From the IMG/VR virus record IMGVR_UViG_3300009157_000036, positions 1 through 31,801 of that record: 31,801 nt of DNA. One strand, given 5' to 3'. Position 1 is the first letter of the stretch. The number at the start of each line of letters is the position of its first letter. Both the position numbers and the translations under genes were made by a program. A model generated the notes under the pieces. That model worked only from the letters and a program-made list of their open reading frames with translations, was not told the origin of the DNA and searched no databases. Positions 1 through 31,801 of the stretch are shown in pieces. The stretch is from a virus.

Positions 1-256
1 CACCAAAGGAGTTCCTCTTACCAAAGGAGTTCCCCTCACCAAAGGAGTTCCACTCACCAAAGGAGTTCCACTCACCAAAGGAGTTCCCCTCACCAAAGGA
101 GTTCCTCTTACCAAAGGAGTTCCACTCACCAAAGGAGTTCCTCTTACCAAAGGAGTTAATATCAGAATAATCAGTAAAAGAAGGGCATTCTTTTATTCCG
201 TTTTCGTTTCTGATTAATTCATCAAATTCTTTCTGGGTAATTTTTTTAAGTTTCAT
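1..256 (-). CDS. Tandem NSFGxx hexapeptide-repeat protein (partial, C-terminus off window)
   Basis: An ATG at 256 opens a frame that stays open to the left edge (85 codons, no stop), so the C-terminus is missing. The first 33 residues are ordinary and charged (MKLKKITQKEFDELIRNENG...). From there the protein is a perfect run of hexapeptides with the core NSFG followed by KR, EW or EG; nine cores are visible. The 18-bp DNA period is exactly six codons, so the repeat is read in frame. I recall similar FG-containing hexapeptide proteins in Bacteroidetes prophages, but none has a function I can name. A repetitive solenoid or surface structure is inference. It lies about 15 bp downstream of the small gene ending at 272 and is probably co-transcribed with the XRE-regulator group. 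Confidence 0.8.
   Translation of the reverse strand, partial: MKLKKITQKEFDELIRNENGIKECPSFTDYSDINSFGKRNSFGEWNSFGKRNSFGEGNSFGEWNSFGEWNSFGEGNSFGKRNSFG
3..157. repeat. 18-bp tandem repeat, about 8.6 copies
   Basis: The unit ccaaaggagttcc + 5 variable bases (ctctta, ccctca or actca endings) recurs head-to-tail with no spacers at 3, 21, 39, 57, 75, 93, 111 and 129, plus a partial copy at 147-157. The first 13 bases are invariant and variation is confined to the part encoding residues 5-6 of each hexapeptide (KR, EW, EG). It is entirely within the coding frame of the gene starting at 256. Confidence 0.95.
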
Positions 257-271
257 TTGTTAATTTTTAAT

Positions 272-433
272 TTAATTCAAATATTTAAAATAAGAAAATT
301 TTCTCTTTCTGATAATTCTCTCATAAAACTGAAGCATCGGAGAATGATTAATCAAATCCAAATATTTCAAAGTGATCGAATTAATCTCATTCTTTGATTT
401 TGAGCCTTCCAGGGAAAGGAGAATTGAAGTCAT
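272..433 (-). CDS. Small hypothetical protein, 53 aa
   Basis: ATG at 433-431 overlaps the TAA of the preceding gene by one base (TAATG), a classic translational-coupling arrangement, and the frame runs 53 codons to TAA at 274-272. The product starts MTSILLSLEGSKSKNEIN and ends in a basic tail (RIIRKRKFSYFKYLN). No family recognised. Support is the tight coupling and the fact that it fills the space between its neighbours; the sequence alone would not prove it is coding. Confidence 0.5.
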   Translation of the reverse strand: MTSILLSLEGSKSKNEINSITLKYLDLINHSPMLQFYERIIRKRKFSYFKYLN

Positions 434-615
434 TATTCTTTTATATTTTTGGCAACCAAATACAGACCTTCTTTAAATATCTGATCGCAAATTTCCGAGT
501 TAGTTAATGTAACTCCAATAGATTCATTATAAAGAAAATATTTTTTGAGTAATATATTATCCTCTCTGGATACCTGAATTACCCTCCCTGCTTTGTTTTT
601 TTTATTCTTTGCCAT
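433..615 (-). CDS. Small basic hypothetical protein, 60 aa
   Basis: ATG at 615. The N-terminus is lysine-rich (MAKNKKNKAGRVIQVS) and is followed by a helical stretch (REDNILLKKYFL...) and SEICDQIFKEGLYLVAKN. The strand-then-two-helices layout and basic start would suit a ribbon-helix-helix DNA-binding protein, but that is inference; no signature motif is clear. It is the first gene after the promoter/operator candidate at 638-674, downstream of the XRE gene, and overlaps the next small gene by one base. Confidence 0.55.
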   Translation of the reverse strand: MAKNKKNKAGRVIQVSREDNILLKKYFLYNESIGVTLTNSEICDQIFKEGLYLVAKNIKE

Positions 616-3282: not shown

Positions 3283-5685
3283 TTAACTTATTACACTTGG
3301 TTTAATTAATAGGGTTGAGCCTTTTGGAAAATTATGTACTGTTTCACCATCTTCGTTACACCAAAACATGTAGTATCCATTTGCCATTTTACCACGACAA
3401 GTATATGTGCCATAACCACCTACTGCCGGATTAACAACTAATTGCGGAAATTTCCTTGTGATGAAATTCTGCATATCTCTTGAAAATGTTATTGTATCGT
3501 CTCCTGCCGTAGCTCCGTGACAGAAAATATAGTATCCATCAAGATCAACCAAATGTTGTCCGAAATCTGATGCAAATATTCTGACTTGATTTGTCGCTAT
3601 ATTAGCAATGTCACTCTTTAGTGATCTTCTTATTCCAATATTTGCGGCTGTTGTCCTTTCACCTGCGATATAAAAATAATCATTGTCAAATACCATACCG
3701 ACATGTTCCCAAACTGATGCCGCCGTTCCCTTGCCTATACTTGTAAATGTCCACACTCCCGTACCTCCGTCTCTTGTGCCAGACATCATATTTTGCTTAT
3801 CCGCATCATCATCACCAGTGCCAACATAAAAAGCATCAGTGTCTGGATCGTAGTTAAAATAATGCACATGCCGACAAATCAATACAGGAGCAGTAACTCC
3901 AAATAAATAAACACTTTTAATGTTAACCCCACCATCTGTCGTTTCCCAAAGATTTATATTAACATCAACGGAAGTACCGCTTGTTGCGTAAGTTCCCCAA
4001 GTATGAAGTTTAACTCCATTGTGTGTTACCTCTCTAAAATCGGTACACCAAGGTCTAAAATTCTGAAGTGTTCCTGCAACAAAAGGATTTCCATCTGCAC
4101 CCGTTACGGTTGATTCTTGATAAGTAGCAAGATTATCATCTGAATAATAGGTTTTTGTTGAATCACAAAACATTATGTTCCCATTATCAAAAATGAATCC
4201 ATAATCAACTAAATCTAAAGTTGTTACTAATGTTATCGGATAAGTTACCCCGCCATCTAAACTTAATGATAAAGTATGGACATCATTAAATTTTAAAACC
4301 TTGAGCCCATTTATTGCGACAATGTGAGTATCTGTAAGAACATCAAATTTTAATAGTGTTGTTTCTCCGCTATAAATAATTGGCTTGTCATAATCCGTCC
4401 CTGCTTTGTTAGTTGCATAGATATAAAAATCTGTTAAAATCCTATTTGTAATCTTACTAAATCTCAACCCTCTATATGCAGAATGAAATATATTTGATAA
4501 TAATAGATTATACATTTCTGTTGCATGTATCCAACTCACATTCGCAGAATTATAAAAATATTTTAAATCTGTCCTTCTGGCAAGATAAGAACACATAAAA
4601 GTATTTGATCTATCCACTCCTGTAACCGGGATATAACTATCAGCAAGATTATGACCTGTTGAGGATACTGGATTATTTTCAGCTACTGTAAAACCTGATG
4701 GCACTACCGTTGATGGTACTCCGGCAGATTTATAAGGAATCTGAATATCTTGTGAGCCAACTTTTGTATAGCGAGTATAACCAATCTCCAAAGACTGTCT
4801 TGACCCATTTAAATCATATTTTTTCTTTGTTGCTTTAAGTAAATTAACACCTGTTAAATGTCTCCCTGCTATGTATTCATAAATTACATTATCATCTTTT
4901 AACCTGCAATCAGTATAAAAAGTAGCACCGGCAACACTACCTCCTGCCATTATTGTATCTACCTGATTTGAAGTTAATATAAAAGGAAATATATAAGCGT
5001 CAGAATGAGAAGATAGTGCAATTTTTTGAAATCCCGTACCCGCATCATTACCCGTTCCTATACAAAATTCAAAAGCATTATCCATTTGAGCAAGATTCCC
5101 TGTATATGACGTATCAACACCTTCTTGAACGTTATTCACAAGTAAACTTATTTTCTTTTGCGTTGTATTTACTTTCATTGTTAACCACATCCAAGGTGAA
5201 CCGCCTGCTGAAAAATCGGTAGTCCCTGACAATGTGATAACTCCACCCGATGATCTTAACTGCGCAAAAAGTATGCCTGTAGTAATATTTACACCTATCC
5301 CATAAAGACCAACAATAGCAGATGTAGTTAGTTTGCCAATTAAATATCTTATTGCAGTTTTATTTGTCGTCTCTGATTTACATTTATGAATAAGTGTAAA
5401 ACCTGTATCCCCTCCCGGCGTAGCAGGATTAACTCCAAGATTATTAACTATGTCTAAAGCACCAAGATCAGCAACATAGGCATATTCATTGCCTGTTGGC
5501 TTGTAAAGATATGGCAGTTGGATTGGAGCAGAAGCACCACCAAGGGAATCAATCATGTTTAGTCCACTTCGGGAAGTAAACCATTGTGTTGGTGTTTCTC
5601 CTCCAAGTGGTTTCTGTGGAGTCCATGACGAACTGCCGGAAGAAGATCCTATTTTTAATCCACCTATGCCAAGTCGAATTCCCAT
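3283..5685 (-). CDS. Tail fibre/tail-spike-like receptor-binding candidate, 800 aa
   Basis: Large beta-rich protein. It starts with a glycine/serine-rich collar (MGIRLGIGGLKIGSSSGSSS), followed by a probable concanavalin/LamG-like beta-sandwich (about 90-245, including WMWLTMKVNTTQKKISLLVNN), a linker, and a C-terminal region (about 360-790) resembling a sialidase-type beta-propeller. Three Asp-box-like motifs (S/T-x-D-G-G-x-x) occur at about 475-482, 582-588 and 636-643. No obvious catalytic set can be assigned, so glycan binding is safer than hydrolysis. Its place immediately before the lysis genes and after the head module is typical for adsorption proteins. Confidence 0.65.
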   Translation of the reverse strand: MGIRLGIGGLKIGSSSGSSSWTPQKPLGGETPTQWFTSRSGLNMIDSLGGASAPIQLPYLYKPTGNEYAYVADLGALDIVNNLGVNPATPGGDTGFTLIHKCKSETTNKTAIRYLIGKLTTSAIVGLYGIGVNITTGILFAQLRSSGGVITLSGTTDFSAGGSPWMWLTMKVNTTQKKISLLVNNVQEGVDTSYTGNLAQMDNAFEFCIGTGNDAGTGFQKIALSSHSDAYIFPFILTSNQVDTIMAGGSVAGATFYTDCRLKDDNVIYEYIAGRHLTGVNLLKATKKKYDLNGSRQSLEIGYTRYTKVGSQDIQIPYKSAGVPSTVVPSGFTVAENNPVSSTGHNLADSYIPVTGVDRSNTFMCSYLARRTDLKYFYNSANVSWIHATEMYNLLLSNIFHSAYRGLRFSKITNRILTDFYIYATNKAGTDYDKPIIYSGETTLLKFDVLTDTHIVAINGLKVLKFNDVHTLSLSLDGGVTYPITLVTTLDLVDYGFIFDNGNIMFCDSTKTYYSDDNLATYQESTVTGADGNPFVAGTLQNFRPWCTDFREVTHNGVKLHTWGTYATSGTSVDVNINLWETTDGGVNIKSVYLFGVTAPVLICRHVHYFNYDPDTDAFYVGTGDDDADKQNMMSGTRDGGTGVWTFTSIGKGTAASVWEHVGMVFDNDYFYIAGERTTAANIGIRRSLKSDIANIATNQVRIFASDFGQHLVDLDGYYIFCHGATAGDDTITFSRDMQNFITRKFPQLVVNPAVGGYGTYTCRGKMANGYYMFWCNEDGETVHNFPKGSTLLIKPSVIS

Positions 5686-5970: not shown

Positions 5971-6516
5971 TTAATCACCAATCATTTGTATTCTACCATT
6001 GTTTCCGCAAGAACTTCCACATACCCCATTTTGATTTTGCCATAAAGGATAGTTAGCATAATTGCGGTTTAAAAAAGTCTGTATCTCACATTTTATAGCA
6101 TCAGCCATTAACCGGGATTCCGTTTCAAGGCGTTGCACGACTTTATCACTTACAGGCGTTGATAGGTCACTATCTTTAACGACTATCCCGGCAGCGGTGT
6201 AATTAAATGGAGTCCGGTTTGTGAATCTTGCAAAAGCGTAATAAATGATGCAGTTTTTGAGTCCCTGAAAAAGATAAGTTTTTGACTGGTAAACATAACT
6301 CCCCCCGTCAAGTAGTAACTGATTAGCTGCCGAAATAGTTTGCGGAGATGTTGAAAACTGGGTGACTATCTCATCAAGCAAAGCATCACCTAACCAAACT
6401 TTTATATCAAATAATTCTGCTTCACTGACAAACTGTGGCCATGATGTCGAATTTTTGACACTATCGCAGACATATTTCAGCGACTGAAGATCGGTAAGAG
6501 TCACAAGCGAAATCAT
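5971..6516 (-). CDS. Head-tail adaptor-like protein (DUF6712-like), 181 aa
   Basis: The ATG overlaps the portal stop (ATGA), so it is translated with the portal. Features are an N-terminal helix set (LQSLKYVCDSVKNSTSWPQFVSEAELFDIKVWLGDALLDEI), a central hydrophobic helix (GLKNCIIYYAFARFTNRTPFNYTAAGIVVKDSDLSTPVSDK) and a helical end rich in Asn/Cys (CEIQTFLNRNYANYPLWQNQNGVCGSSCGNNGRIQ). The YYAFARF...GIVVKDSD pattern is what I recall of the DUF6712 family in Bacteroidetes phages, which sits where head-completion/adaptor proteins are found. The adaptor role is inferred. Confidence 0.6.
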   Translation of the reverse strand: MISLVTLTDLQSLKYVCDSVKNSTSWPQFVSEAELFDIKVWLGDALLDEIVTQFSTSPQTISAANQLLLDGGSYVYQSKTYLFQGLKNCIIYYAFARFTNRTPFNYTAAGIVVKDSDLSTPVSDKVVQRLETESRLMADAIKCEIQTFLNRNYANYPLWQNQNGVCGSSCGNNGRIQMIGD

Positions 6517-7658
6517 GATGTAGTTTGATTTGGTACGTATTCTGCCGGTTTGATAGAAAAGTCTGTAAATTTAACACTATAAAATTGCAATAAAATTTTA
6601 AAAACCTCTCCAATTAAACGGCGCTCATCTGAACAAATATTATTCATAAAAATATATGCATTGATAAGCAAATCGCTTCCAAAACCATTGCCTACATCAA
6701 CTCCTCGCAAAACGGGAGGTATCTTAAACATACCTGCAATATTTTCTTTAACAGTTCTTTCAGTTAGTTCAAATTGCCTGTCATAATTGTTTGCAATGAA
6801 AGGTTTATACTCAGGCACTTCTTCATCGGCATCAATGTCTATGACTATAATTTTACAAGCCTGATCATCTCCTTGCCATGCTTTTATTTCATTTGCACTT
6901 TGCGTTTGCTGTTGATTGTACGGGTCTTTTGGATCAATTGATCCATCGTTAAGAGTCCGGGGTTTGATACCTTTACGTACCAACATCCCGGCTGCGAGAA
7001 AATTATGTTTTGCGTTTCGATGTTTAACTGTAGACACGCTTTCTTCGGTAAGCATATCGGTCACAATAGGATCAAAAGGGCTTATCGGGTATTCAAAATC
7101 ACCATCTGCCGTGAAATAAAGTATCTGACCAAGGTAGTTCTCCGGGCCACCGGCCTCTGTCATCTCGGCAATTACTTTCTCTAGATCAAAACGATTAATG
7201 AATTTTACATCGGACATTTTGAAAGGCTTTCCCTCGATGCCTGTCCAGTCGGAATAAACAGCGATCCTTCCGGTATATTCTTTATTTAATATCTCAATCC
7301 GGCAATGCTCGAAAGGGATATTAAAATATTCATAAGGCTGCCCCATACCGTTATATTTAACAAGACAGGCAAAGCCATTAAAGTTTTTAAGATCCTTTGC
7401 AAATTTCCTGAGCAGTGAATTTGCCCTCTCTCCTTTTGAATTGAGAATTGTCTCGGAAAAGATTTGATCTACAAAGCCACCACCTTCAACAAATTTAACG
7501 TAAATATCAAAACAGGTCTTTCCTGTCCCGGATGAATTAATTATTTCTAAAACCTTCTGGGGATAATCATTATTCTGACCGTAACCCTTTATTTTTTTTG
7601 AAGTAATATAAGAGTTCCGCTCGACTCGTGGGGCCGTCTTTGCTGCGGATACTCTCAT
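6513..7658 (-). CDS. Phage portal protein
   Basis: 381 aa, of the short portal type. An N-terminal basic segment precedes SSGTGKTCFDIYVKFVEGGGFVD, then a wing-like alpha/beta region (FACLVKYNGMGQPYEYFNIPFEHCRIE...YSDWTG), a long helix region and the C-terminal clip/stem-like section ERTVKENIAGMFKIPPVLRGVDVGNGFGSDLLINAYIFMNN. The pattern NI..MF.IP..L.G......GFGSD..I is characteristic of Bacteroidetes phage portals. Portals form the dodecameric DNA gate of the capsid and dock terminase. The start overlaps the preceding stop (TAATG). It lies downstream of the capsid gene instead of next to terminase, which is unusual. Confidence 0.75.
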   Translation of the reverse strand: MRVSAAKTAPRVERNSYITSKKIKGYGQNNDYPQKVLEIINSSGTGKTCFDIYVKFVEGGGFVDQIFSETILNSKGERANSLLRKFAKDLKNFNGFACLVKYNGMGQPYEYFNIPFEHCRIEILNKEYTGRIAVYSDWTGIEGKPFKMSDVKFINRFDLEKVIAEMTEAGGPENYLGQILYFTADGDFEYPISPFDPIVTDMLTEESVSTVKHRNAKHNFLAAGMLVRKGIKPRTLNDGSIDPKDPYNQQQTQSANEIKAWQGDDQACKIIVIDIDADEEVPEYKPFIANNYDRQFELTERTVKENIAGMFKIPPVLRGVDVGNGFGSDLLINAYIFMNNICSDERRLIGEVFKILLQFYSVKFTDFSIKPAEYVPNQTTS

Positions 7659-8803: not shown

Positions 8804-8816
8804 AATTACCTCCTAT
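8804..8816 (-). promoter_or_regulatory. Strong Shine-Dalgarno for the 206-aa structural gene
   Basis: AGGAGG at 8814-8809 lies five bases before the ATG at 8803 and overlaps the TAG stop of the capsid gene. A full-consensus Shine-Dalgarno is uncommon in Bacteroidetes, whose genes usually rely on A-rich unstructured leaders, and most genes here lack one. It implies high expression. Confidence 0.7.
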
Positions 8817-9892
8817 CTTCCAACCATTAACAAACGGTCGTCGATTATTTTTGCATCAAGTGCATCAGTAGCCTCAATTCGGTTATAACGACTTCTTGGA
8901 TCGTAAAATGAATTAACATTTTCAAATGCCGAGGTACAAGCCAGTCCAATATTTAAATTCGACACGGTAGTATAAACAGCACGATGAGGATCGTTCCAAC
9001 GGGTACCGTTATTTTCATAAGCCCTGATCCACTGATCCCAAAGAGGAATAGAGACAATTCTGATTCCGTCCCATGTTGCAAATTCAAGACCGTTGATCAT
9101 GAGTTTGTAATCCTGAAATGCGGTACCAAGAGCCTGAAGTTGTCTGCGGAGCCTGTCAAAAACTGACCGGGTAACAAGCAACACCCTGTCCGGTTGAGCT
9201 GCTAACTCAGAAATTGCATTGTCAATAAGCGTGTTGATAGCATTATACATTAGCAGTGGAGTTGCTACTGACTGTTGCAGTGCATAAGTAGCCTGTGTGT
9301 TTCCGGGCAATGCGTTTAACTGAAGTGGATTTGCTGCGTAAATAGCTGCAAACTGAACCCAAAAACCGTCAATAACGTTGAAAAATGTCGGGTCAACGCC
9401 TGGCGTAATATTCCCAACTGGGAAATTAGCTGCATTTTTATCGTCAAACCAAACGGTACGGAAAACCATTTTTGGAAGGTCTTTTGCAAGAAGATCCTGG
9501 ATAAATGCAAAAATCTGGGTCTTTGTAAGATCATAAGGATTCGCGCAATCAACATAAAGGCGCATAAGTGAGTTTGTGATCTCATCAATACACATATCAA
9601 TTATCACTTCTTTATATTTTGGCTCCCATGTTTTTTCAATAGCGGTATCTTCGTAACACTGAGCTGTCGGGTTGCATGCCTGAGCTGCTTTACCAATAAG
9701 GCCAAATGTACCAGGGATTATTCCGATGCGTTTGTCGTTTTTTATTCCAGTTACAAGAGTGTGAAAATCTGTAAGAGATGGAGCTTCAAGTACGGCGGTT
9801 ACAACAAGTTCATTTAATGACCGGAGTTCATCAGCGGTAAAATGAAGATTGTCGAGATTGAGTGTGTGTCCACACGAGGGAGAAGTTGGCAT
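8813..9892 (-). CDS. Major capsid protein
   Basis: 359 aa, soluble, between the head protease and the structural gene at 8183, the place expected for the capsid subunit. The N-terminus (PSCGHTLNLDNLHFTADELRSLNELV) resembles the start of Bacteroidetes phage capsids, followed by EDTAIEKTWEPKYKEVIIDMC, a P-domain-like VWFDDKNA region, a helix with AQPDRVLLVTRSVFDRLRRQLQALG, and a C-terminal sheet (LEFATWDGIRIVSIPLWDQWIRAYEN...PHRAVYTTVSNLNIGL). The 'G..I..IP.WD......' and 'P.RA..TT..N...G' strings recur in HK97-like capsids of this host group. HK97 fold is inferred from family resemblance. Confidence 0.8.
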   Translation of the reverse strand: MPTSPSCGHTLNLDNLHFTADELRSLNELVVTAVLEAPSLTDFHTLVTGIKNDKRIGIIPGTFGLIGKAAQACNPTAQCYEDTAIEKTWEPKYKEVIIDMCIDEITNSLMRLYVDCANPYDLTKTQIFAFIQDLLAKDLPKMVFRTVWFDDKNAANFPVGNITPGVDPTFFNVIDGFWVQFAAIYAANPLQLNALPGNTQATYALQQSVATPLLMYNAINTLIDNAISELAAQPDRVLLVTRSVFDRLRRQLQALGTAFQDYKLMINGLEFATWDGIRIVSIPLWDQWIRAYENNGTRWNDPHRAVYTTVSNLNIGLACTSAFENVNSFYDPRSRYNRIEATDALDAKIIDDRLLMVGR

Positions 9893-9894
9893 AG

Positions 9895-10983
9895 TTATTT
9901 ATCTTTATTGTTTTTAATTATCTCACGTACCTGGTCGAGATTCACATCTCCAACCTTTTCAACGGAACTGAATTTAGTCCTTCCTTCAGGCTTCCATGTA
10001 TTTTTCAGGTTGCTTAATTCTGTCACGAGTGCAACAGCTTTAACTTTTTCTGCTTCAAATGCTGTCTTAGCTGCTTCCGCTTCTGTTTTAACTTTTTCAG
10101 CATCGGTAATTTTTGCTTTCTCGGCATCAAGTTGTTTCTGAAGATCTGCAATTTTATCATTTGCAAGATCAAGTTCTGTCTTTGCAGGTTCCTTTACTTC
10201 ACTAACGGCACCATTGGTGATGACAATTGTTTTCCCATCAGCCATTACAAATGACCCGTCAGGAGAAGCCTTATCGCCGACTGTTGGCGCACCGGTTTCT
10301 TTTTCGAGTTTAAATTCTTTCCCGTCCTTATCTTTCAAAGTTTGATCTTTGGCAGGAAGTCTGGAAAGATTTTTTATTTTTTCGAGAATAGCATCTATCT
10401 TTTCCCCGAAAGTTTTAACATCTTTTTCTGTCATTGTGAAATTATTTTTTGGTTTAAAAATTGCGACTGCTTTTAAAGGTTCCGAGATTTTAGTTGCAAA
10501 TCCAAGTTTCAACATGTCATCTGCTGAAAGCATCGTTTCCTTTTTCATGTAATCTCTCAGAACTTCTTTGTCTTGTTTTGTTACCTCCACATAAAGATTT
10601 AATATTTTTTCTTCTTCCTGATCCATATATTCAGCCATTCCCCTTAAATCAGAGGCTTGAAAATCACCTTCAGGATTCGGGATTCTTGGCATGTGAATTA
10701 ACCCGTCTGAATTTGGGTAAATTTCTCTTTCTGAACCAGCTAAAAAAATTACAGTAGCAATACTGTAAAGCTCACCTTCTGCGATCATTTTTATTTTCTT
10801 ACCAGAATTTTTTAATAGGTCATAAATTGTCCAACCCTCACGAACACTACCACCGGGACTTTTAATTCTGACGGTTAATTCAGTAGCTTCTTTATTCTTG
10901 TCAAGAAAAGAAATAAGATCATCGGATGAAAATTGATTCTCGTCCGTGCCAATAACAGAGTAAATTCTTAAAGTTGGTTCCAT
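9895..10983 (-). CDS. ClpP-type head maturation protease fused to scaffold-like coiled coil
   Basis: From ATG 10983 (a TTG sits one codon upstream) the product is 362 aa. Residues 1-165 are a ClpP-like serine protease: oxyanion-loop KSPGGSV (41-47), nucleophile Ser74 in GELYSIATVIFLAG, His97 in LIHMPR, and the acidic residue in KKETMLSADDMLKLGFA (Glu149). Phage head proteases of this family commonly have D/E-T-W/M at that point. Residues 165-362 are charged, with a long Lys/Glu/Ala coiled coil (LANDKIADLQKQLDAEKAKITDAEK..., about 265-325), typical of an internal scaffold removed on maturation. It precedes the capsid gene by 2 bases. Confidence 0.85.
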   Translation of the reverse strand: MEPTLRIYSVIGTDENQFSSDDLISFLDKNKEATELTVRIKSPGGSVREGWTIYDLLKNSGKKIKMIAEGELYSIATVIFLAGSEREIYPNSDGLIHMPRIPNPEGDFQASDLRGMAEYMDQEEEKILNLYVEVTKQDKEVLRDYMKKETMLSADDMLKLGFATKISEPLKAVAIFKPKNNFTMTEKDVKTFGEKIDAILEKIKNLSRLPAKDQTLKDKDGKEFKLEKETGAPTVGDKASPDGSFVMADGKTIVITNGAVSEVKEPAKTELDLANDKIADLQKQLDAEKAKITDAEKVKTEAEAAKTAFEAEKVKAVALVTELSNLKNTWKPEGRTKFSSVEKVGDVNLDQVREIIKNNKDK

Positions 10984-11078
10984 CAAAAATCTACGTCAAT
11001 TTTTTCAAGCCAAAAATTATAGACATCGTCGCCCATTTCTACAATCCCGTTAACCCATGTTTGTATTTCTGTCCACAT
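10983..11078 (-). CDS. Leader-like small ORF, 31 aa, coupled to the head protease
   Basis: ATG at 11078 to TGA at 10985-10983, overlapping the protease ATG as TGATG. The product begins MWTEIQTWVNGIVEMGDD and ends FWLEKIDVDF. It is the first frame after the promoter candidate at 11097-11132, with a leader of only about 12-15 bases. Stop/start overlap argues for translational coupling of the protease. Alternatively it is a chance frame; no family recognised. Confidence 0.45.
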   Translation of the reverse strand: MWTEIQTWVNGIVEMGDDVYNFWLEKIDVDF

Positions 11079-11096
11079 AATTTATACTTTAGAATA

Positions 11097-11132
11097 CAAA
11101 TGTAAATCCATTACATAAATTTAATTATGTAA
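11097..11132 (-). promoter_or_regulatory. Candidate head-operon promoter with inverted-repeat operator
   Basis: TACATTTG on the minus strand (11104-11097) matches the Bacteroidetes -7 consensus, 18 bases before the 31-aa ORF. Just upstream, 11111-11132 is an inverted repeat with perfect 8-base arms, ttacataa and ttatgtaa, separated by 6 bases. It lies where the -33 element would be, and no TTTG is present there, so binding of an activator or repressor is plausible. A terminator directly upstream (11166-11193) means the head genes need a promoter here. Confidence 0.5.
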
Positions 11133-11165: not shown

Positions 11166-11193
11166 AATAAAAAGCCCTGGATTTCTCCAAGGC
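11166..11193 (-). terminator. Intrinsic terminator after the glycosylation island and candidate RNA
   Basis: On the minus strand GCCTTGG (11193-11187), a 6-base loop and CCAGGGC (11180-11174) form a 7-bp stem (one G-U), followed by TTTTTATT (11173-11166). The other strand has no T-run. It lies about 110 bases past the last glycosylation gene and just before the head-operon promoter candidate. Confidence 0.8.
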
Positions 11194-11293
11194 TAATTAA
11201 GAACAGTAACTTATTTGCATTTCGTTTACTTCGTCCAGTTGCCAAGTCATAGATGCCTCTCTTTGTCTTCTGGCTGCCGCTTGTTCTTAATTA
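11168..11293 (-). ncRNA. Candidate structured small RNA or attenuator, about 120 nt
   Basis: A perfect 12-bp long-range pairing joins TAATTAAGAACA (11293-11282) with TGTTCTTAATTA (11205-11194) around a 76-base G/A-rich core, and the terminator stem at 11193-11174 follows without a gap. A -7-like box (11303-11296) would start transcription at the outer edge of this stem. The core has only short internal complementarities (GCCAG with TTGGC, ACTT with AAGT). It also contains a 17-codon frame, MTWQLDEVNEMQISYCS, from ATG 11250 with GAGAGG seven bases upstream; its TAA (11199-11197) lies in the 3' arm of the long stem, so a translating ribosome would disrupt the pairing. Whether it is a free RNA or a leader/attenuator of read-through from the glycosylation genes cannot be decided by eye. 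No Rfam family recognised. Confidence 0.4.
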
Positions 11294-11295
11294 TA

Positions 11296-11303
11296 CAAAT
11301 ATA
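11296..11303 (-). promoter_or_regulatory. -7 promoter-like box before the candidate small RNA
   Basis: TATATTTG on the minus strand matches TAnnTTTG exactly and begins right after the stop codon at 11304. It would place a start near 11289-11290. A TTG exists upstream but only about 12 bases away, shorter than the usual 19-21, so the -33 element is poor. In such AT-rich DNA chance matches occur. Confidence 0.3.
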
Positions 11304-11816
11304 TTAAATATTTTTCAAGATTCCGCCCCCATGAATTACTAAATTACATCCTTTTTGAGTTAAGGCTGTCTTTAGATTTTTAAAATGGAGAATAATATTA
11401 TCAAGTTGTTTTTTATCAAAATTAGGATGACCAATTAAATCTACTCCAAACAAATGAATCTCATCAGCAAAATAATATTTGTAAGCTATCTCGGCAGCAA
11501 CAAACGGTGAGCAGAGTGATTTATGCAGTGCTGGAGTTTCAAATTGGACGAAGTTATCAGGATAACCTGGAAGAAAATCTATCTTTACAAAATCCGGTCG
11601 GGTATCCCATGCTACAATCTGACTATAAAATGCTTTAGGCTTGCAATCGTTTATTATTTTTAATCGATCATGAGTAAAGATGTTTGGATAATCAAGACAT
11701 ACAACGACATTAGTTTTTACGTGTCGCCAAATGTCATTAACACCGATTGACAAATCAAAATCAGGTGCGTTAAAGTTTTTTAAAGAGGGGCCCAACCCCA
11801 GTGTTGCGATTTTCAT
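11304..11816 (-). CDS. DUF115/GT42-like glycosyltransferase-associated protein, 170 aa
   Basis: The N-terminus MKIATLGLGPSLKNF followed by FDLSIGVNDIWRH fits the nucleotide-binding start of DUF115/sialyltransferase-like (GT42-related) proteins (GxGPSL ... GVN). Later motifs include VVVCLDYP and CSPFVAAEIAYKYYFADEIHLFGVDLIGH, where 'I.L.G.D' is also conserved in that group. It is shorter than cellular versions, a compact phage form. It overlaps the preceding gene by 47 bases and is the last gene of the island. Substrate unknown; involvement in glycan addition is inferred from the neighbours. Confidence 0.6.
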   Translation of the reverse strand: MKIATLGLGPSLKNFNAPDFDLSIGVNDIWRHVKTNVVVCLDYPNIFTHDRLKIINDCKPKAFYSQIVAWDTRPDFVKIDFLPGYPDNFVQFETPALHKSLCSPFVAAEIAYKYYFADEIHLFGVDLIGHPNFDKKQLDNIILHFKNLKTALTQKGCNLVIHGGGILKNI

Positions 11817-25862: not shown

Positions 25863-26506
25863 GCATATTTCTTTTTAGGTTCCGATTCTTTTTTCAGCAT
25901 GTTAAAATATCTCTCTTGAAAATCTGACTGCTCCTTTGCAACCATAAATCTAACAAGACATTCGTTATATGGAGTTAACAGTACTTCAGGCACGGTGCAT
26001 TTCATCGCATCACGAAGAAAGTCAAGAGATGTTAATTCAGAAAACACATTTAGCTTTTCAATGCCAGCTGCAAGTTCTATCTTCGATGGTTCCCGATGCA
26101 AGAACCTCTGTTCCTTTTCGATCATTTCACCAACAAGAGAAATAAGATGCATGGCAATAGGGTATAAATTAACCACCTTCAAAGATAATATATTTTTACC
26201 AAAGTTCAACGCTTTATCTTCATCCCATTTTTTGCCGGAAACAAAAGGATAGTAATATCCATCCATCATGCGGATTATAGACCCAAAATCATTGTCTTCT
26301 TTTCGCACAAGAAAAAGCCTTTGCCCATAGCAAATGTTACTGGTAAACTCTTCCAGTGTTCTTGGAATAGAAAGTTTCTTGTGTTTTATCCTAATAAATT
26401 CCGGGAGAGGCAACTGAGACAATCCGTCGGACAACCCTACATAAAGCGGAAGATTGTCTATCATTTCTTTCAAAGTCAGTTTTTCAATACCAATTACATG
26501 TGCCAT
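25859..26506 (-). CDS. Hypothetical protein near terminase, 215 aa
   Basis: Soluble, helical, 215 aa, ending in a basic KKESEPKKKYA. Notable strings: LPLYVGLSDGLSQLPLPEFIRIKH, a long helix ALNFGKNILSLKVVNLYPIAMHLISLVGEMIEKEQRF, and VPEVLLTPYNECLVRFMVAKEQSDFQERYFNML. It overlaps the TerL end by 13 bases. No domain recognised. A connector or assembly-chaperone role is a guess from its place between packaging and tail genes. Confidence 0.5.
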   Translation of the reverse strand: MAHVIGIEKLTLKEMIDNLPLYVGLSDGLSQLPLPEFIRIKHKKLSIPRTLEEFTSNICYGQRLFLVRKEDNDFGSIIRMMDGYYYPFVSGKKWDEDKALNFGKNILSLKVVNLYPIAMHLISLVGEMIEKEQRFLHREPSKIELAAGIEKLNVFSELTSLDFLRDAMKCTVPEVLLTPYNECLVRFMVAKEQSDFQERYFNMLKKESEPKKKYA

Positions 26507-27687
26507 GTCTGTATGCCTGATGATTTATCGTGTTCCATAATTACATATCTAAGCGCAGCTAATCCGTCGGGCTCGTGTCCTTCAGGTTCCGGGATTATCT
26601 TCCCGTTAATATCTACCTTCCAAAAATATGTCTCAATGCCTTTTTTGATAGTCACAGATCTGGGAGTCAGAAAAATATCATAGCCCCGGACTTTATTTAT
26701 CCCGTTGACAATTGACCCCGACGGTTTTTTAACTCCACGAATATTATATCCATGCTTGCGAATATCTCTAATCTCAGTGGCACCGGCGGAATCAGCTATA
26801 ATCAATTGTCCTTTTGAATGGTTTACAAAGTCTAATTCATCAACAATAGCCAATCTCTCGGCACCTTGTATTTTTTCAGGCATGAGATTGTTTAAAGAAA
26901 ATACCTCATCGACATAAAGGCAGTTATCTTTTTTCCAAACATCAATTAAAACAGTCGGATCCGGCGAAACACCAAAGTCCATCCCGGAAGGGATTCGCCT
27001 TGCATTGTCCGGAATTTTGTCGGTCCATTGATAGTTATATATCCTACGTGCAGAATAGTAGCCAGTTTGACCAAGACCATAAATTCTAAACCAATCAATA
27101 TTATCTTTTCGGGAAAGTATGTAATCAATTTCACTTTGTGGGCACATCTCATTATCCAGGTAAGTTACAATTATTTGCTCACTTATTGAATTGCCCTTCT
27201 CGTCATTTAGTTTTGGAATCTCTGTATGCGCCCAAAATTCAAAATCCGGGTTGTAATCAATATAAATCTCCTCATGTGTTCTACCAATGTAAGTACTTGC
27301 AACCTGCCAACCTATTTTATTTGCTTCATTTATGTAAAGAATGTCACGCCGTTTTGATTTGCCGGCATCACTTTTATTATCCGAAATATATCGAAATTGA
27401 ATAACAGATCCTTTGAGATTTATTTCATGCGAAGATTTATTGTAATATTTATCCCATTCTAAATTATTTTCCTCAAAGATATGTTCGAAATCCTTTATTG
27501 CACCATCTTTTAAATTATCATAAGTATCACTAACAACTGTAATAGTCCTTCTTTTCTGAAGTGCTCTTACAATTAGAATTTGAGCTATGGAATAATTTTT
27601 CGAACTTGCTTGGCCGCCTTGAACAACTTTAATTTTGGCAGCCATCGCACATATTTTTTTAAACGTAGTGGTAGTTTGTGAGATCAT
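26494..27687 (-). CDS. Terminase large subunit (TerL)
   Basis: 397 aa, normal for the Terminase_3/PBSX-like family. ATPase: deviant Walker A VQGGQASSKN (22-31, Lys30), Walker B ILYINEAN (116-123) with Asn120 where most terminases have Asp, followed by catalytic Glu121, then the coupling motif VTYLDNE (174-180). Nuclease: RNase H-like triad Asp237 (GMDFG), Asp299 (IADSAG) and Asp374 (HEPDGLAALRY). It packages DNA into the prohead through the portal and cuts the concatemer. The ATG overlaps TerS (ATGA). Asn in Walker B is seen in other Bacteroidetes TerL as far as I recall. Confidence 0.93.
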   Translation of the reverse strand: MISQTTTTFKKICAMAAKIKVVQGGQASSKNYSIAQILIVRALQKRRTITVVSDTYDNLKDGAIKDFEHIFEENNLEWDKYYNKSSHEINLKGSVIQFRYISDNKSDAGKSKRRDILYINEANKIGWQVASTYIGRTHEEIYIDYNPDFEFWAHTEIPKLNDEKGNSISEQIIVTYLDNEMCPQSEIDYILSRKDNIDWFRIYGLGQTGYYSARRIYNYQWTDKIPDNARRIPSGMDFGVSPDPTVLIDVWKKDNCLYVDEVFSLNNLMPEKIQGAERLAIVDELDFVNHSKGQLIIADSAGATEIRDIRKHGYNIRGVKKPSGSIVNGINKVRGYDIFLTPRSVTIKKGIETYFWKVDINGKIIPEPEGHEPDGLAALRYVIMEHDKSSGIQTWHM

Positions 27688-31237: not shown

Positions 31238-31801
31238 TTATTTATTGAAAAAGTTACTAAACGTACTATTCCCCCATTCCTCTTTAGTTACTTTAATCAT
31301 CTCTGCGATAGTGTATTTTCTCTGTTTCTTTTCCAATCTGTTGTTTATAAAGTCTTTTGTACCAAAGGAACAAGCCCCAGTAATTACCCGGTAACACATT
31401 ATAGCATCTTCAAAAGACAAAGTATCTGTTAATTTTAAATCTTTATAGTCGTCTTTTGTCCTGTTACTGATTTTAAACATTAAATCACTTTTCGCTTCTT
31501 TTAATGTTTCTCCGTGCGACCATTTTCCATTTCCGTCAGTAACCAAATATATGATTTCTTTTGCTCCAATTTTGCGAACATGATAGACATTACCTCTATG
31601 GCTTATTACCTCAGTAAATATTCCATCGGCTAATAAATATTTGCCGTCTTGCCATGATAATATATATCCACTCGGTAATTTTTTATATGTAACTTTTAAA
31701 TTACTACTGAGATAAAGGCCTCCCCCTACCGTGGGATTGAACCCGGGAATAAGTGACGTGACACTACTGAGATAAAGGCCTCCCCCTACCGTGGGATTGA
31801 A
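31238..31801 (-). CDS. Leucine-rich-repeat phage protein (partial, N-terminus off window)
   Basis: The frame is open from the right edge to TAA at 31240-31238 (187 codons), so only the C-terminal portion is present. It begins with two 20-residue repeats, FNPTVGGGLYLSSVTSLIPG then FNPTVGGGLYLSSNLKVTY, of the type NPTVGGxLYLSSLTSIPEGF known from phage leucine-rich-repeat proteins. A conserved C-terminal domain follows: LPSGYILSWQDGKYLLADGIFTEVISHRGNVYHVRKIGAKEIIYLVTDGNGKWSHGETLKEAK..., with CYRVITGACSFGTKDFI and a basic end. I recall this combination in Bacteroidetes phage proteins. Possible roles are ligand binding or an effector-like function. Confidence 0.8.
   Translation of the reverse strand, partial: FNPTVGGGLYLSSVTSLIPGFNPTVGGGLYLSSNLKVTYKKLPSGYILSWQDGKYLLADGIFTEVISHRGNVYHVRKIGAKEIIYLVTDGNGKWSHGETLKEAKSDLMFKISNRTKDDYKDLKLTDTLSFEDAIMCYRVITGACSFGTKDFINNRLEKKQRKYTIAEMIKVTKEEWGNSTFSNFFNK
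31703..31801. repeat. 60-bp in-frame tandem repeat with a 39-bp identical core
   Basis: The 39-base sequence beginning actactgagataaaggcctc at 31703-31741 recurs exactly at 31763-31801, separated by 21 bases (31742-31762). The 60-bp period equals 20 codons and encodes the LRR-type repeat of the gene at 31238. The second copy ends at the last base of the window. Confidence 0.9.

What the first reader, a model, noticed from the sequence alone, without database searches (positions are those of the whole stretch)
11166..11303. Self-contained candidate RNA unit between the glycan island and head genes
Seen directly: a -7-like box TATATTTG (11303-11296), a perfect 12-bp long-range stem (11293-11282 with 11205-11194) and an immediately following intrinsic terminator (stem 11193-11174, T-run). 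Inference: a discrete RNA of about 120 nt, or a leader controlling read-through from tail plus glycosylation into head genes. I recognise no known RNA family. The poor -33 region and AT-rich context are weaknesses.
Basis: partly seen in the sequence, partly recalled or inferred. Interest (0 to 1): 0.75.

Follow-up and report, generated by a model that had tools for sequence, protein, structure and literature searches.

The report
Orphan phage RNA cassette in cargo slot
Between the sugar-modification genes and the head genes of a phage of Bacteroidales bacteria lies a stretch of about 125 letters that looks like a tiny non-coding RNA gene; related phages use the same spot for other small cargo, in one case a transfer-messenger RNA, but nothing yet shows what this RNA does.

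Summary
The -7-type box, the perfect 12-bp inverted repeat and the terminator are at the stated places; a repeat placed hard against promoter box and terminator was met in 0 of 20,000 shuffles. The window is a Bacteroidales-type phage, where TAnnTTTG is the correct -7 box; it puts +1 near 11291, so a 10-bp closing stem would start at the first nucleotide. I compared 61 distinct junctions of phages that keep the same left-flanking gene. Most have nothing there. Thirteen, the window included, have a terminator, and ten of those also an insert: protein genes, a permuted tmRNA (L084), short non-coding units. Four slot terminators plus a host 5S-rRNA terminator share one GAAA-capped 9-bp design with compensatory changes in four pairs. 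The window's insert has no sequence homologue in anything searched and no Rfam match, so covariation of the 12-bp stem cannot be tested; its interior is not unusually stable and the -33 box is missing. No antiterminator fold was found and the head operon has its own promoter below the terminator, so the attenuator reading is unlikely. Best reading: orphan small-RNA cassette in a cargo slot (0.45). Main rival: operon tail/terminator with a decayed payload (0.35).

The parts
11296..11303 (-). TATATTTG, Bacteroidota -7 box (TAnnTTTG); predicted +1 at 11291
   Evidence: Sequence; box spans -12 to -5 in Flavobacterium psychrophilum (PMC9723704). Weak -33 region: score -5.5, overall rank 22 of 63,514.
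11282..11293 (-). 5' arm of the closing stem, TAATTAAGAACA
   Evidence: Exact complement of 11194-11205; end placement in 0 of 20,000 shuffles; pair probability 0.8-1.0 for the 2nd to 9th pairs of an RNA from 11291.
11194..11205 (-). 3' arm of the closing stem, TGTTCTTAATTA, abutting the terminator
11173..11194 (-). Intrinsic terminator: 9-bp stem with GAAA loop, then TTTTATT (11172-11166)
   Evidence: Same design in slots of L084, L027, L041 and after a host 5S rRNA (L146): 45 of 45 cells paired, 4 pairs with changes on both sides.
11168..11291 (-). Predicted transcript of about 124 nt (candidate orphan small RNA)
   Evidence: Inference from promoter box, stem and terminator; fold z = -3.5. 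No transcript data.
11197..11250 (-). 17-codon ORF MTWQLDEVNEMQISYCS inside the unit, GAGAGG upstream; probably not a gene
   Evidence: Stop-to-stop frame 11197-11286; no homologue with which to test conservation.
11097..11104 (-). TACATTTG, promoter box of the head operon, below the terminator
   Evidence: Second-best promoter score in the window; counterpart in L002, L005, L007.
10983..11078 (-). 31-aa first ORF of the head operon (MWTEIQTWVNGIVEMGDDVYNFWLEKIDVDF)
   Evidence: Sequence; homologue MWTEIQVFVNGFVNMGNDVYNFYVDYFDVEY at the same place in L006.
9895..10986 (-). ClpP-type prohead protease, right flank of the slot
   Evidence: Pfam PF00574 E 1.4e-24.
11304..11816 (-). 170-aa conserved gene of unknown function, left flank of the slot (end of glycan island)
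   Evidence: 63 sequences, the window and loci of relatives, found by tblastn; no Pfam or PHROG match.

Best explanation
The unit is a small, self-contained non-coding RNA cassette (about 124 nt, 11291 to 11168, minus strand) in a cargo slot between the end of the glycan island and the head-operon promoter of a Bacteroidales phage. Host RNA polymerase starts just below TATATTTG, the 5' end is locked by pairing with the segment directly before the terminator, and a host-style GAAA-capped terminator ends the RNA. The product would be a 5'-protected, compact RNA with an interior of about 75 nt that acts in trans, most likely by pairing with host or phage mRNA or by occupying a host RNA-binding factor. 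Shown: position, stem, terminator design, slot, absence from the nearest relatives. Inferred: promoter use, the RNA itself, any trans action.
For: Anatomy confirmed, end placement of the stem in 0 of 20,000 shuffles. TAnnTTTG is the primary -7 box in Bacteroidota and spans -12 to -5 (PMC7366714, PMC9723704), putting +1 at 11291, inside the 5' arm. The closest syntenic relatives (L002/L003/L012, 73% ClpP identity) have the same two genes and head promoter but no unit, so it is a discrete insert or was lost there as a block. Of 61 distinct junctions, 13 have a terminator and 10 of these an insert. In L084 the insert is a permuted tmRNA (RF04321, 74.3 bits, E 2.9e-12), and its predicted 5' end also pairs with the segment just before the terminator (7 bp). 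Terminators of this design covary. On the minus strand no ATG-started frame longer than 17 residues lies within the unit.
Against: No homologue of the insert in 85+ related phage loci, the phage and plasmid collections, 295 Bacteroidales genomes, or two exact-pattern scans of IMG/VR, so the 12-bp stem has no covariation test. No -33 box. TATATTTG aligns with what is the -33 element in sister cassettes L014, L027 and L033, which have a further TAnnTTTG 18-20 nt on, and the window lacks that second box. The body without terminator is not unusually stable (z = -1.3).
Confidence: 0.45

Rival explanations
1. The unit is the 3' end of the glycan operon: a terminator that insulates the head promoter, preceded by the decayed remains of an earlier payload. 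Only read-through RNA is made and the stem has no function of its own.
For: L007, L037 and L039 have a terminator and no payload in the same slot; L037 keeps a -33-like ATATTTATTTATTAAAAATATT with no -7 box, as a decayed cassette would. In the window TATATTTGTATAATTAAGAA resembles the -33 region of L014 and L033 and the usual -7 position reads GCAGCCAG. Body z only -1.3.
Against: A perfect 12-bp helix exactly between box and terminator is not expected of decay (0 of 20,000), and it is not in the minimum-energy fold of a read-through transcript.
Confidence: 0.35
2. It is the mRNA of a 17-residue peptide (MTWQLDEVNEMQISYCS), with the stem protecting its ends.
For: ATG at 11250 with GAGAGG upstream; the ORF fills the second half of the unit.
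Against: No homologue; Bacteroidota initiate translation without Shine-Dalgarno sites as a rule (PMC9723704); the stop codon lies inside the 3' stem arm; selection cannot be tested on one sequence.
Confidence: 0.08
3. It is an attenuator or riboswitch-like leader that controls read-through from the glycan operon into head genes.
For: P1-like closing stem directly before a terminator, a layout shared with riboswitches.
Against: No fold found that sequesters the terminator 5' arm, also with the 3' arm blocked or absent. The head operon has its own promoter at 11104. Most relatives lack the unit altogether.
Confidence: 0.05
4. A short mobile DNA element with 12-bp terminal inverted repeats (MITE-like).
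For: Perfect 12-bp inverted repeats around a 76-bp core, absent from the nearest relatives.
Against: No target-site duplication visible, no second copy in the window, no homologue elsewhere, and no reason for a terminator directly outside one repeat.
Confidence: 0.04

Closest known systems
Phage-encoded small RNAs (reviewed in PMC12197685) and Bacteroides intergenic sRNAs such as GibS (PMC7366714)
   Same: Bacteroidota-type promoter box, size of the order of 100-200 nt, intrinsic terminator, no coding frame of note.
   Different: GibS is mostly open and conserved among species; this unit has a long-range closing stem, no homologue and no expression evidence.
Permuted tmRNA (Rfam RF04321) as found in the same slot of L084
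   Same: Same genomic slot, TAnnTTTG box just after the glycan gene, 5' end paired with the segment before a GAAA-capped terminator of the same design.
   Different: No tRNA-like domain, T-loop or acceptor; no Rfam match; half the size. Not a tmRNA.
Phage moron cassettes (promoter, cargo gene, terminator)
   Same: Extra unit between two conserved phage operons, present in single lineages only, with its own terminator.
   Different: The cargo here is apparently non-coding and its promoter is weak.

Membership tests
Known Rfam RNA family | Score at or above the gathering cut-off | tested here: not met
   No match in the window; the best weak matches, BSnc120 24.9 of 114 bits and STnc260 20 of 100, are on the opposite strand.
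Permuted tmRNA (RF04321) | tRNA-like domain matched by the covariance model | tested here: not met
   No RF04321 match in the window record; ARAGORN finds none.
Moron-like cassette (phage cargo unit) | Absent from the nearest relatives at an otherwise conserved junction | tested here: met
   L002/L003/L012 lack it; 45 of 61 junctions have no terminator or insert.
Moron-like cassette (phage cargo unit) | Own promoter | tested here: inconclusive
   TATATTTG present, -33 poor, rank 22 of 63,514.
Moron-like cassette (phage cargo unit) | Own terminator | tested here: met
Intergenic trans-acting small RNA | Discrete transcript with mapped ends | not testable with these tools
   No RNA-seq for this phage.
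Intergenic trans-acting small RNA | Structure conserved with covariation | tested here: inconclusive
   Terminator yes; the 12-bp stem has no homologue to test.
Riboswitch/attenuator leader | Mutually exclusive terminator and antiterminator folds | tested here: not met
   No alternative pairing of the terminator 5' arm found.

The most novel reading that the evidence does not exclude
The junction between glycan island and head operon in this phage group is a recurrent slot for independent RNA cargo. The window's RNA is one of a set of lineage-specific phage RNAs, with a permuted tmRNA in a sister phage, that act on host translation or defence.
Probability: 0.25. Interest if true: 0.6.

Novelty: new member of a known kind. 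Interest (0 to 1): 0.36.

Why it matters
If the RNA is made, it would be an unclassified small RNA from an uncultivated Bacteroidales phage, a group whose RNAs are little studied. The slot gives a way to find more of them: look between the same two genes in relatives. The permuted tmRNA in one of them shows that the slot can hold a real RNA gene. As it stands the window's own unit rests on a single sequence.

Tried and rejected
Rfam at gathering and relaxed thresholds: nothing on this strand. DNA similarity to phages, plasmids, 30 related records and 295 Bacteroidales genomes: only promoter or terminator fragments. Two exact patterns from the core in IMG/VR: a 20-mer gave none; a 16-mer gave 40 matches in unrelated, mostly GC-rich contexts, read as chance. 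DGR template or internal repeat: no second copy in the window. Antiterminator search: none. tmRNA-like or tRNA-like: none. I first counted the repeat array in the L041 slot (36-nt unit) as a second RNA, then set it aside because the opposite strand has a 132-codon open frame with a regular GYL...DSL repeat, so it may be a coding remnant. The sigma-70-like TTGAAA-17-TATAAT (11 of 12) was set aside because Bacteroidota lack such promoters (PMC7366714); if used, it would move +1 to about 11283 and remove the stem.

Full report
What the window is. The minus strand reads, in order of transcription: terminase large subunit (26494-27687, PHROG), genes that by position are probably tail genes, a glycan island (family-2 glycosyltransferase and C-methyltransferase domains), a 170-aa gene of unknown function (11304-11816), the strip in question, then a ClpP-type protease (9895-10986, Pfam E 1.4e-24), a protein that by position is probably the major capsid protein (8813-9892, PHROG of unknown function) and a portal protein (6513-7658). 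Protease relatives include Bacteroides and Cellulophaga phages, and a syntenic copy lies in a Bacteroidales MAG (L084). The record itself is a virus record of 31,801 bases.

Box, 12-bp repeat and terminator are where stated. The repeat alone is not remarkable: the window has three such repeats. Its end-to-end placement is (0 of 20,000 shuffles). In Bacteroidota the primary sigma factor reads TAnnTTTG (PMC7366714), and in Flavobacterium psychrophilum this box occupies -12 to -5 (PMC9723704). That puts +1 at 11291, where the stem would retain 10 of its 12 pairs. [quoted passage not shown] johnsoniae (as cited in PMC7366714), so its absence here is a weakness, not a refutation.

Comparison with relatives. 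From three protein scans of IMG/VR and one of GTDB genomes I took 61 distinct junctions, the window included, that start at the stop codon of the 170-aa gene, nearly all reaching the ClpP gene. Forty-five have no terminator and no large insert; 27 of these show TAnnTTTG within 130 nt of the stop. Three (L068, L121, L142) were left out of the tally as distant or cut off. Thirteen have a terminator. Three of those (L007, L037, L039) have nothing else. Six carry a protein gene: L009 (also L020), L014, L027, L033, L050, L065. L084 carries a permuted tmRNA (RF04321, 74.3 bits; ARAGORN agrees, tag GKTIKMFTQPLRMVA). L041 carries a repeat array of doubtful nature. L028 and the window carry short non-coding units. 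The closest syntenic relatives of the window, L002, L003 and L012, have neither terminator nor insert but keep the head-promoter block (ATAGTAAA...TTTATGTAATGG.TTTAC.TTTG) seen at 11104 in the window.

The terminator is the best-supported part. In the window, L084, L027, L041 and after the 5S rRNA gene of the Bacteroidales MAG that carries L084 (L146, read as 5S by eye), it is a 9-bp stem with a GAAA loop. All 45 cells pair, four of the nine pairs change on both sides, and slid controls drop to 18-63% paired. The sequences were chosen for the shared loop, so this supports the hairpin, not common descent of the cassettes.

The promoter is the weakest part. TATATTTG fits the box but its upstream region scores -5.5 against a median of about 1.6 for 32 promoters from relatives. 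Aligned from the stop codon, sister cassettes (L014, L027, L033) have ATATTTGTTTATT-like sequence as the -33 element and a second TAnnTTTG 18-20 nt on. The window has the first but not the second. It can therefore be read as a -7 box in its own right or as the relic of a -33 box. In L084, where both boxes are present, the predicted RNA also begins with the arm of a stem whose other arm lies just before the terminator. That resemblance favours the -7 reading but is one case.

Function. The body without terminator is only mildly stable (z = -1.3), so the significant structure is the closing stem plus the terminator. No fold was found that competes with the terminator, and the head operon has its own promoter beyond it, so control of read-through is unlikely. 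I therefore favour a trans-acting small RNA with protected ends, at 0.45, against a decayed cassette or operon tail at 0.35. The target is not predicted: with no homologue, no seed region can be told from the rest, and a target search on a 75-nt interior without a host genome would give chance matches.

Noticed in passing
L084:5490-5818 (JALHSP010000072.1, Bacteroidales MAG; also L143 and L145): A permuted tmRNA gene (RF04321, 74.3 bits; G3-U70-type acceptor by eye; proposed tag GKTIKMFTQPLRMVA) in a phage syntenic with the window, in the same slot. Of 247 Bacteroidales genomes searched, two are over the cut-off, this one included.
   Followed up: partly
L199:1410-1896: Second permuted tmRNA in a Bacteroidales genome (51.1 bits, tag GNKIESKIAA), beside a ParB-like gene; probably a mobile element or phage.
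   Followed up: partly
L041:5540-5745 and L195 around 4170-4240 (same virus, IMGVR_UViG_3300031578_000106): 36-nt tandem units [AAGTGAATCA]N8[AAGAYAACCA]N8 in two intergenic places of one phage, each after TATCTTTG and before a terminator; the opposite strand has an open frame with GYL/DSL repeats, so RNA or protein-coding origin is unclear.
   Followed up: partly
L144:526-790 and 301-450 (minus strand; L002's phage, near the end of its contig): Two further apparently non-coding intergenic units with TAnnTTTG boxes and terminators; the box region of the second resembles the slot promoters of L033, L037 and L027; no Rfam match.
   Followed up: partly
window 31703-31741 and 31763-31801: Exact 39-bp direct repeat at the very end of the contig, with stretches that resemble tRNA D- and T-arms on the minus strand; no Rfam or ARAGORN match. 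May be an assembly end effect.
   Followed up: partly
window 1-157: 18-bp tandem repeat, 8.7 copies, coding on the minus strand for NSFG(E/K)-type six-residue repeats; cut by the contig end.
   Followed up: no
window 10983-11078 and the same place in relatives: The head operons begin with very short, fast-evolving ORFs (about 31-59 aa, often with an ETC..AY....ME..LY....YYQ.FEC pattern) of unknown function, one or several per phage.
   Followed up: no
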